Below, one piece after another: positions 3 to 2,020 of a DNA stretch of 12,318 nt. A model generated the notes under the pieces. It did no database searches. It was given only the letters and a program-made list of their open reading frames with translations, and had not been told where the DNA came from. This DNA is from an uncultured Clostridia bacterium (GTDB lineage Bacteria > Bacillota > Clostridia > Oscillospirales > Oscillospiraceae), in NCBI GenBank assembly GCA_938023775.1, contig CALJDB010000354.1:1-12318 (forward strand), given 5' to 3'. The stretch's first letter is position 1. The number at the start of each line of letters is the position of its first letter. Position numbers and translations under genes: made by a program.

Positions 3-593
3 AAGGACGGTGTGTTCGATCCCGGCGAGAATGCCGTCGGACTGACCATCGACGGCGTCGGCGACGTCAATCTGCGCATGTCTGTCTATTTCTTCGAGAA
101 GATCAACGCCGCGGGCATCCGCACCCACTATGTCGGCGCCGACCTCGGCGAGACAACCATGGAGGTCCTCCCGGCGAAGGTCTTCGGCAAAGGGCTGGAG
201 GTCATCTGCCGCCGCCGCGCAGTCGGCAGCTTCCTGCGCCGCTACAGCGAGTATGTCGAGGAGGGCGCGGCGCTGCCCTATTATGTGGAGACCACCTTCA
301 AAAACGACGCGAAGGGCGACCCCCTCGTGACGCGAGACGGGCTCATCGTCCTCGGCGTGATGACCGGCGAGCAGTATGACGCGATCCGCGAGATGACCCA
401 GCGCATCACGAAAATCGTCGCCGACGACCTCGCCGAAAAGGGGCTGGAGCTTTACGACATCAAGTTTGAATACGGCTACGACGCCGACGGCGGCGTGATG
501 CTCATCGACGAGATCGCCTCCGGCAATATGCGCGTCTATAAGGACGGCAAGTATATCGACCCGATGACGCTCTCCGAGCTGTTCTTTGCGTAA
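3..593 (+). CDS. purC: Phosphoribosylaminoimidazole-succinocarboxamide (SAICAR) synthase, 5' end missing
   Basis: PurC joins CAIR and aspartate using ATP to give SAICAR, step 7 of IMP synthesis, in the cytoplasm. The visible frame is open from the window edge (K-D-G-V-F-D-P-G-E) and ends at a TAA, giving about 196 residues. Full proteins of this family are about 230-240 residues, so roughly the first 40 residues, including the GKxxD nucleotide-binding start, lie outside the window. Recognisable blocks are the stretch around GLTIDGVGDVNL, the VICRRRAVGSFLRRY block that carries the conserved arginines, and near the C terminus LYDIKFEYG followed by LIDEIASGNMRVYKDG. The GTG at position 12 is internal and not the true start. 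The stop codon overlaps the purF start (TAATG), suggesting translational coupling. Confidence 0.95.
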   Translation, partial: KDGVFDPGENAVGLTIDGVGDVNLRMSVYFFEKINAAGIRTHYVGADLGETTMEVLPAKVFGKGLEVICRRRAVGSFLRRYSEYVEEGAALPYYVETTFKNDAKGDPLVTRDGLIVLGVMTGEQYDAIREMTQRITKIVADDLAEKGLELYDIKFEYGYDADGGVMLIDEIASGNMRVYKDGKYIDPMTLSELFFA

Positions 594-2020
594 TGGGCGG
601 CTTTTTCGGCGCGGTCTCGAACCGCGATGTCGTACTGGATGTCTTTTTCGGTACGGATTACCACAGCCACCTCGGCACGCGCAACGCCGGGCTTGCGTTC
701 TGGGACGGCGAGCGCGGCTGCCAGCGCCAGATTCATTCCATCGCGAACACGCCCTTCCGGACGCGCTTTGAGGACGATCTCCCGGAGTTTCAGGGGCGCT
801 GCGGGATCGGCTGCATCAGCGACAGCGACCCCCAGCCGCTGCTCGTGCGCTCCCATCTTGGGCTTTATGCCATCACCACCGTCGGGATGATCGGCAACGC
901 CGAGGAGCTGGTGCAGACCTATTTCTCCGACCACGGTCACCAGTTTATGGCGATGAGCTCCGGCGCGGTGAACGCCACGGAGCTTGTCGCGGCGCTCATC
1001 AACGAAAAGGAGACGCTTGCCGAGGGCATCGTCCATGCCCAGAGCCTCATCGACGGCGCGATGAGCATCCTGCTCATGACGGGCGAGGGCGAGATCATCG
1101 CCGCGCGCGACCGCTGCGGACGTCTGCCCGTGCTGCTTGGGCAGAGCGAGGAGGGCTGCTGCGTCTCCTTCGAGTCCTTCGCTTACCAGAAGCTTGGCTA
1201 CCATAACTTGGCCGAGCTCGGTCCCGGCGAGGTTGTGCGCATCACGCGCACGGGCTATGAGACGCTCGTTCCGGCGAAGCCGGAGAATCTCAAAATCTGC
1301 GCCTTTCTCTGGACCTATTACGGCTACCCGAACTCCAACTACGAGGGCGTGAACGTGGAGCTGATGCGCTACCGCAACGGCGCGGTCATGGCGCGCAGCG
1401 AGCGCGAGCGCGGCGCGATGCCGGACGTGGACTATGTCGCCGGCGTGCCCGATTCCGGTATTCCCCACGCCATCGGCTACGCGACGGAGAGCGGCAGATC
1501 CTTCGCCCGTCCCTTCGTGAAATACACCCCGACGTGGCCGCGCTCGTTTATGCCGAGCAGTCAGGCGGTGCGCGATCAGGTAGCCAAGATGAAGCAGATC
1601 CCGGTCCCGGAGCTCATCGAGGGCAAAAAGCTGCTTTTTGTGGACGACTCCATCGTCCGCGGCACCCAGCTGCGCGAGACGGTCGATTTCCTCTATGAAT
1701 CCGGCGCGGAGGAGGTCCACATGCGCTCGGCGTGCCCGCCGATCATGCATGTCTGCAAATATCTCAATTTCTCCCGCGGCAACTCCGAGCAGGAGCTGTT
1801 GACCCGGCGGACCATCCGCCGTCTGGAGGGCGAGGCGGGGGACGCGCATGTGAAGGAATACGCCGACGCTTCCACGGAGCGGGGACAGTGCCTGCTCCAC
1901 GCCATCTGCAAGGAAATGGGCTTCCAGTCCCTCGGCTATCAGACGCTGGACGGGCTGCTGGAGGCGATCGGACTCGACAAAGACAAGGTCTGCACCTATT
2001 GCTGGACCGGAGAGGAGTGA
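593..2020 (+). CDS. purF: Amidophosphoribosyltransferase, variant with a degenerate glutaminase domain
   Basis: PurF makes 5-phosphoribosylamine from PRPP, the committed first step of purine synthesis. The 475-residue protein has an N-terminal Ntn-type domain (about 1-230) and a C-terminal phosphoribosyltransferase domain with the PRPP loop VDDSIVRGTQ at 350-359. Cysteines 236, 388, 467 and 470 match the four [4Fe-4S] ligands of B. subtilis PurF; C381 is an extra nearby cysteine. The glutaminase site looks dead. The protein begins MGGFFG, so the Cys1 nucleophile is Gly; the HNGN motif reads TVGM, and the conserved Arg of GHVRY and Asp of SSDTE are absent. The start is fixed because an in-frame stop lies at 539-541 and no start codon falls between it and 593. 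Other PurF proteins recalled from Clostridia and Bacteroidetes share this MGGFFG start. Identity is firm; ammonia dependence is inference. Confidence 0.95.
   Translation: MGGFFGAVSNRDVVLDVFFGTDYHSHLGTRNAGLAFWDGERGCQRQIHSIANTPFRTRFEDDLPEFQGRCGIGCISDSDPQPLLVRSHLGLYAITTVGMIGNAEELVQTYFSDHGHQFMAMSSGAVNATELVAALINEKETLAEGIVHAQSLIDGAMSILLMTGEGEIIAARDRCGRLPVLLGQSEEGCCVSFESFAYQKLGYHNLAELGPGEVVRITRTGYETLVPAKPENLKICAFLWTYYGYPNSNYEGVNVELMRYRNGAVMARSERERGAMPDVDYVAGVPDSGIPHAIGYATESGRSFARPFVKYTPTWPRSFMPSSQAVRDQVAKMKQIPVPELIEGKKLLFVDDSIVRGTQLRETVDFLYESGAEEVHMRSACPPIMHVCKYLNFSRGNSEQELLTRRTIRRLEGEAGDAHVKEYADASTERGQCLLHAICKEMGFQSLGYQTLDGLLEAIGLDKDKVCTYCWTGEE

What the first reader, a model, noticed from the sequence alone, without database searches (positions are those of the whole stretch)
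593..900. PurF with an apparently dead glutaminase domain
The protein starts MGGFFG where canonical PurF, after processing, starts Cys-Gly. The Cys1 nucleophile is Gly2 here, and no propeptide is possible because an in-frame stop lies at 539-541 with no start codon after it. Compared by eye with B. subtilis PurF, the other glutaminase positions are also changed: QHRGQ reads GTRNA, GHVRY reads GCISD, HNGN reads TVGM, and the SSDTE aspartate is lost. The phosphoribosyltransferase half looks fully functional. The committed step of purine synthesis in this organism may therefore use free ammonia or receive it from an unidentified glutaminase partner. Similar MGGFFG proteins in Clostridia and Bacteroidetes (from memory) suggest a whole subfamily annotated as ordinary PurF.
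Basis: partly seen in the sequence, partly recalled or inferred. Interest (0 to 1): 0.7.

Follow-up and report, generated by a model that had tools for sequence, protein, structure and literature searches.

The report
PurF that lost its glutaminase site
In this bacterium, whose nearest relatives live in guts, the enzyme that starts purine synthesis has lost its glutamine-splitting site, as has a large old subfamily of such enzymes; it probably uses free ammonia instead, but nobody has assayed it here.

Summary
The PurF gene at 593-2020 begins MGGFFG with no room for a propeptide. Against E. coli PurF, all 112 distinct relatives that I aligned lack Cys1 (Gly 111, Ser 1) and the glutamine loop 73-80; Arg26 and Asn101 are replaced in 112 and Asp127 in 110, while the PRPP residues checked are invariant. 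This is one deep clade with its own motif, KYTPTW, in the flexible loop. The dead domain is under purifying selection.

It probably does the job. 30 of 30 genomes whose only PurF is of this type have purD, against 0 of 15 genomes without a PurF match; in 7 of the 30 the gene lies far from the operon, so this is not mere linkage. A stand-alone class II glutaminase candidate turned up in 1 of the 30. Of 103 PurF-bearing genomes among 118 Clostridia, 10 have only this type and 5 more a lone Ser1 PurF inside a pur cluster; Ser1 arose on four branches. Relatives occur in Bacteroides fragilis and archaeal MAGs.

Most likely an ammonia-dependent phosphoribosylamine synthase. No enzymology exists here; a partner glutaminase is not excluded.

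The parts
593..2020 (+). purF-like CDS (M-type: MGGFFG start), 475 aa
   Evidence: TIGR01134 176 bits against a cut-off of 350
539..541 (+). in-frame TAA upstream; no start codon between it and 593
   Evidence: read
596..1282 (+). glutaminase-derived Ntn domain, residues 2-230, catalytically degenerate but conserved
   Evidence: fold; columns; omega
596..598 (+). Gly2 in the place of the nucleophile Cys1
665..679 (+). SHLGT replacing QHRGQ (R26 to Leu)
812..838 (+). CISDSDPQP: junction where the glutamine loop (R73-S80) is deleted
878..889 (+). TVGM replacing HNGN (oxyanion Asn101 lost)
956..982 (+). SSGAVNATE replacing SSDTE (Asp127 lost)
1520..1549 (+). KYTPTWPRSF, rebuilt flexible loop (E. 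coli KNRYVGRTFI)
   Evidence: pLDDT below 50 at residues 311-318
1640..1669 (+). PRPP loop VDDSIVRGTQ, retained apart from T374 to Gln
1298..2002 (+). span holding four cysteines (236, 388, 467, 470) in columns where canonical clostridial PurFs also have Cys; Fe-S ligand role recalled from B. subtilis PurF
3..593 (+). purC, 5' end outside the window
2029..3066 (+). purM
3060..3692 (+). purN
3692..4321 (+). PurO-like IMP cyclohydrolase (PF07826)
4327..5505 (+). stand-alone AICAR formyltransferase (NF005492)
5525..6790 (+). purD
6797..10492 (+). purL, single chain with its own GATase_5 domain
10522..12198 (+). fhs, formate-THF ligase

Best explanation
The gene encodes a PurF whose glutaminase half is catalytically dead and kept as a structural or regulatory shell. 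The PRT half makes 5-phosphoribosylamine directly from PRPP and free ammonia, which PurD then uses. Shown: loss of the nucleophile, glutamine-binding residues, oxyanion Asn and glutamine loop; retention of the PRPP site; one deep, selected clade; and its presence as the only PurF found in genomes with purD. Inferred: that ammonia is the nitrogen source, that the rebuilt flexible loop admits it, and what the dead domain does.
For: Catalytic columns in 112 of 112 relatives and the structural match. K326, R332, F334, K349, D366, D367 and T373 invariant in the same 112. purC-purF-purM order in 56 of 80 loci, and a ZTP riboswitch in 5 of 11 related loci scanned. purD over its cut-off in 30 of 30 genomes with only this PurF against 0 of 15 with no PurF match; 0 of 30 hold a PurF over the TIGR01134 cut-off. 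Twenty of the 30 were reached through pur loci, so purD is partly linked there; but all 10 from the class sample have it, and in 7 of these 10 no pur gene was found near the purF-like gene. Class II glutaminase searches in the 30: one stand-alone candidate, in G039. Ser1 on 4 branches of the other lineage, five of those genomes with no other PurF match and the gene inside a pur cluster. E. coli PurF with Cys1 changed to Ala or Ser loses glutamine activity but still uses ammonia (passage of PMC3261824, which cites Mei and Zalkin 1989). Median omega of the dead domain 0.157-0.205.
Against: No activity data. 23 of 33 genomes with this type in the Clostridia sample also hold a second, canonical-lineage PurF. 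In 10 of 13 more distant loci (L141-L153) no pur gene was found near it, so a side role is possible there. Many genomes are MAGs and completeness was not shown; G025 is only 0.9 Mb. Ammonia-linked markers do not track it: AsnA 21 of 33 against 42 of 70; glmS over its cut-off 19 of 30 against 24 of 30, the latter being the first 30 of the 70. The window's own genome was not held, so a second PurF there cannot be excluded; G011, the genome of the near relative L007, has one.
Confidence: 0.7

Rival explanations
1. A separate glutaminase, for instance a class I enzyme or the GATase_5 domain of PurL in the same operon, docks on the conserved shell and feeds ammonia to the PRT site.
For: The shell is conserved with clade-specific near-invariant residues; PurL with a GATase_5 domain is encoded in the operon. 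One of 30 genomes (G039) holds a 394-aa frame that starts MCCLFG and looks like a stand-alone class II glutaminase.
Against: No other stand-alone class II frame in the 30 genomes with four families: the rest are 449 aa or longer, apart from a 313-aa piece of glmS in G021. In 7 of 30 the only GATase_7 match is this PurF. Class I enzymes were not searched, and neighbours of the distant loci were listed by their starts only.
Confidence: 0.14
2. Where a Cys1 PurF is also present, this paralogue is not a PRA synthase but a regulator or a transferase of phosphoribosyl to another amine.
For: 23 of 33 genomes in the class sample hold both; the flexible loop and several PRT positions are rebuilt and near-invariant.
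Against: It is the only PurF found in 30 genomes with purD and lies in the same pur cluster as the canonical gene in 16 of 80 loci.
Confidence: 0.12
3. The domain still hydrolyses glutamine by a non-canonical residue, for instance the cysteine at the old H71 position.
For: That Cys is present in 108 of 112.
Against: It is internal, not N-terminal; R73, N101 and the whole glutamine loop are gone in 112 and D127 in 110.
Confidence: 0.03

Closest known systems
Canonical PurF / GPATase (B. subtilis 1ao0, 1gph; E. coli 1ecb, 6czf; Arabidopsis 6lbp)
   Different: No Cys1, R73, N101, D127 or glutamine loop; rebuilt flexible loop; half the NCBIfam cut-off score.
E. coli PurF Cys1-to-Ala/Ser laboratory mutants (PMC3261824, passage)
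   Same: No N-terminal Cys; ammonia is the remaining nitrogen source.
   Different: Engineered point changes; here the whole site has gone in an old natural clade.
Mlab_0150 of Methanocorpusculum labreanum (PMC3261824, passage)
   Same: Natural PurF-like protein without Cys1 (Ser).
   Different: Recent duplicate beside a Cys1 PurF, which the authors suspected not to be GPATase; closer in kind to the Ser1 cases.
Beta-lactam and carbapenam synthetases (1jgt, 1q15)
   Different: AsnB-like partner domain, other chemistry (recalled).

Membership tests
PurF / amidophosphoribosyltransferase | Whole-chain GPATase fold | tested here: met
PurF / amidophosphoribosyltransferase | PRPP loop and PRT catalytic residues | tested here: met
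   K326, R332, F334, K349, D366, D367, T373 invariant in 112 of 112
PurF / amidophosphoribosyltransferase | NCBIfam TIGR01134 equivalog cut-off (350 bits) | tested here: not met
   176.2 bits; B. fragilis and three other members 169-189 bits
PurF / amidophosphoribosyltransferase | N-terminal Cys1 nucleophile | tested here: not met
PurF / amidophosphoribosyltransferase | Glutamine-binding and oxyanion residues R73, D127, N101 (G102 is kept) | tested here: not met
PurF / amidophosphoribosyltransferase | Place in the purine operon | tested here: met
   window; near relatives (not so in 10 of 13 distant loci)
PurF / amidophosphoribosyltransferase | PRA synthesis from PRPP | not testable with these tools
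   needs an assay
Class II (Ntn) glutamine amidotransferases | N-terminal nucleophile | tested here: not met
Class II (Ntn) glutamine amidotransferases | Ntn fold | tested here: met

The most novel reading that the evidence does not exclude
An ancient branch of PurF left glutamine altogether and became a dedicated ammonia-dependent entry enzyme of purine synthesis, its dead glutaminase reshaped into a new domain that gates or senses ammonia or nucleotides; it replaced canonical PurF repeatedly in anaerobes, while other lineages approached the same end by Cys1-to-Ser loss.
Probability: 0.3. Interest if true: 0.8.

Novelty: new variant of a known kind. Interest (0 to 1): 0.66.

Why it matters
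The committed step of purine synthesis is taught as glutamine-dependent. If this reading holds, 15 of the 103 PurF-bearing genomes in a 118-genome Clostridia sample start purines without a Cys1 PurF, and B. fragilis carries such an enzyme too, all under the ordinary name where a name was given. It would tie purine supply to ammonia level, change metabolic models of gut anaerobes, and predict that glutamine analogues miss this step. One complementation experiment would test it.

Tried and rejected
Start-codon error or propeptide: rejected; no start codon after the in-frame stop, and 140 of 140 relative ORFs (duplicates between loci included) read Met or Val(GTG), Gly or Ser, Gly at the expected place. 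18 of the 140 have some upstream in-frame start codon, but the residue at the Cys1 place is the same there. Assembly accident or decay: rejected; 112 distinct sequences, one clade with 100% SH-aLRT, omega well under 1. Another Cys, Ser or Thr at the N-terminal place: not seen, apart from one Ser in 112 (L132).

Ammonia-habit markers: AsnA and glmS do not separate the groups; null. In G054 the gene lies about 2 kb from asnA; one case, not counted as support. I first wrote that no stand-alone class II glutaminase exists in the 30 genomes; on checking, the 394-aa frame of G039 starts MCCLFG and looks like one, so that is now 1 of 30. The 449- and 477-aa frames of G054 and G105 look AsnB-like by eye (no family search).

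Literature: ten searches; no listed title or abstract start describes this subfamily, and 'MGGFFG' occurs in no held paper. One search listed 30 of 51 papers. Subscription papers are mostly not held. Of PMC3261824 and PMC10912719 I saw passages only; of the other papers listings only.

Rows dropped: six were left out of the tree (two halves of a split PurF frame in G057, a truncated one in G113, a GlmS-like piece by its start, one M-type row, one duplicate reference). In the mapping one window residue was dropped, so numbers after about residue 228 are one low. The 50 canonical rows include E. coli itself; three of them did not show Cys1: L155 has Ser, and my trimming cut L157 (Ser) and L173 (Cys). 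Two further canonical-lineage PurFs keep Cys1 but align a non-Arg at 73 (L181, L189) and one a non-Asp at 127 (L214); not followed up.

Full report
WHAT IS THERE. The window (12,318 bases) is a purine operon: purC (5' end cut), purF-like, purM, purN, a PurO-like IMP cyclohydrolase, a stand-alone AICAR formyltransferase, purD, single-chain purL and fhs. The purF-like gene runs 593-2020 and its ATG overlaps the purC stop by one base. The in-frame TAA at 539-541 is real and no start codon follows it before 593, so the protein starts M-G-G-F-F-G. NCBIfam TIGR01134 scores it 176 bits against a cut-off of 350. I call such proteins M-type.

REBUILT, NOT DECAYED. Members share near-invariant residues that canonical PurF lacks, such as D-Y-H-S-H-L at 22-27, the loop K-Y-T-P-T-W and Gln after the PRPP loop. 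B. fragilis keeps KYTPTW and VRGTQ but has Asn for His at 24. Canonical Tyr329, in the flexible loop that closes on PRPP and lines the ammonia channel (role recalled), is Thr in 112 of 112. Four cysteines where canonical clostridial PurFs also have Cys are kept in 111-112 of 112 (Fe-S ligand role recalled). Median omega over 36 disjoint pairs is 0.157 for the dead domain and 0.106 for the PRT part; over 2,054 usable pairs of 2,628, 0.205 and 0.138 (genes of L001-L080 only).

FAMILY. A quick tree of 91 rows puts the 60 M-type rows on one side of a branch with 100% SH-aLRT support and a stem of 1.76 changes per column (quick method, and the program warns of long branches). Members were found in Oscillospiraceae and other Clostridia (544 stretches matched, 488 confirmed, best 80 kept), in MAGs named Bathyarchaeota, Nitrososphaerota, Spirochaetes and Endomicrobia, and in Bacteroides fragilis (P0258). 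Where a source gives a name it is amidophosphoribosyltransferase. Protein searches scored at most 8,000 candidates, so family size is not known.

IS IT THE ONLY PurF? Of 40 genomes chosen from the 80 loci (named isolates and mostly longer contigs, not random), 20 hold a PurF over the TIGR01134 cut-off and 20 do not. In a sample of 118 Clostridia genomes drawn evenly (95% completeness was asked for; values not shown), 103 hold a PurF match: 33 have M-type, 10 of them with nothing else and 23 with a second match of the canonical lineage; 70 have the canonical lineage only. Of the 23 second copies I checked Cys1 only in those that I happened to fetch. On the tree, 'only' against 'both' needs at least 9 changes over 46 rows; missing contigs could inflate this. 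The window's own genome is not held.

DOES IT DO THE JOB? purD is over its cut-off in 30 of 30 genomes with only M-type (20, 10) and in 0 of 15 genomes of the class sample without a PurF match; one of the 15 holds a fragment. None of the 30 has a PurF over the cut-off. The 20 were reached through pur loci, so purD is not independent there. The 10 are: in three the gene is in a pur cluster, and in seven (G081, G054, G132, G048, G089, G151, G119) no pur gene was found within the stretch fetched, yet purD is in the genome. Among the 80 near loci the order purC-purF(M)-purM is seen in 56; 16 hold a canonical purF in the same cluster; 8 show no purC beside it, some at contig ends. A ZTP riboswitch lies before the operon in 5 of 11 related loci scanned (L002, L007, L010, L019, L142); the window, also scanned, has none but starts inside purC. 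Against this, in 10 of 13 distant loci (L141-L153) no pur gene was found nearby.

PARTNER GLUTAMINASE? In the 30 genomes GATase_6 gave 54 matches in 22 genomes, GATase_7 matches in 29, GATase_4 three weak matches and GATase_2 11 matches, all in frames of 1,304 aa or more. The shortest frames are a 313-aa piece of glmS in G021 and a 394-aa frame in G039 that starts MCCLFG and looks like a stand-alone class II glutaminase; next come frames of 449 and 477 aa that look AsnB-like. In 7 genomes (G132, G048, G089, G151, G009, G019, G025) the only GATase_7 match is the M-type PurF itself; G016 gave none. Class I glutaminases were not searched.

INDEPENDENT LOSSES. I aligned one PurF from each of the 70 canonical-lineage-only genomes, plus further copies of seven of them. 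Five genomes have a single PurF match, with Ser at position 1 and Asp at 101: G115, G152, G092, G098, G153. In all five it sits in a cluster with purL, purM, purN, purD and a PurH-sized match. Four more genomes hold a Ser1 copy beside another PurF (G071, G086, G095, G148). Ser1 needs four changes on a quick tree of 79 rows, all forced by starred branches; Asn101 is Asp in 7 of the 9 Ser1 rows. G113 is cut at a contig end and undecided. So in 15 of 103 PurF-bearing genomes I found no Cys1 PurF. Whether Ser1 could act is not tested here; in E. coli the Cys1-to-Ser enzyme had no glutamine activity (PMC3261824, passage).

MECHANISM. The same passage says that E. coli PurF without Cys1 still works with ammonia. 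With a dead glutaminase, an intact PRPP site, hardly any spare class II glutaminase and an otherwise normal-looking operon, direct use of ammonia is the simplest account. Many near relatives come from rumen and gut samples (titles), places rich in ammonia (recalled). The conserved shell may serve oligomer contacts or allostery; that is a guess. AsnA (21 of 33 against 42 of 70) and glmS (19 of 30 against 24 of 30) do not separate the groups, so I found no wider sign of an ammonia habit.

NOVELTY. Ten literature searches listed no account of this subfamily (see Tried and rejected). The closest precedent seen in print is Mlab_0150, a Ser PurF-like duplicate (PMC3261824, passage). I rate it a new variant of a known kind: same fold, same slot near the window, probably the same product, another nitrogen source.

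Noticed in passing
window 3692-5505: The last two steps to IMP are split: a PurO-like cyclohydrolase (PF07826) and a stand-alone AICAR formyltransferase (NF005492) stand where a fused PurH is usual.
   Followed up: no
L002 8601-8683, L007 8663-8750, L010 8585-8668, L019 8677-8760, L142 7942-8060: ZMP/ZTP riboswitch before the pur operon of related genomes.
   Followed up: partly
L236 1105-6051 (-): One open frame of 1,649 aa matches PurD (residues 4-419) followed by PurL (420-1644), an apparent PurD-PurL fusion, beside a lone Ser1 PurF.
   Followed up: partly
L229, L232, L233, L234: Second PurF copies with Ser1 beside another PurF in four Clostridia genomes; function unknown.
   Followed up: partly
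L241 2-1102 (-): A frame starting MCCLFG in G039, by eye a stand-alone class II glutaminase-like protein of a genome with only M-type PurF.
   Followed up: partly
L143 2393-9721: The sole M-type purF lies next to what look by eye like pyrimidine genes (a 1,057-aa carbamoyl-phosphate-synthase-like ORF and transcarbamoylase-like ORFs, no family search).
   Followed up: no
control genome Bacteroides ihuae: TIGR01134 rings at E 1e-3 but not at 1e-35, although purD rings; which PurF it uses is unexplained.
   Followed up: no
P0241: 661-aa M-type protein in which most of the PRT half appears twice; assembly error or true duplication not decided.
   Followed up: no
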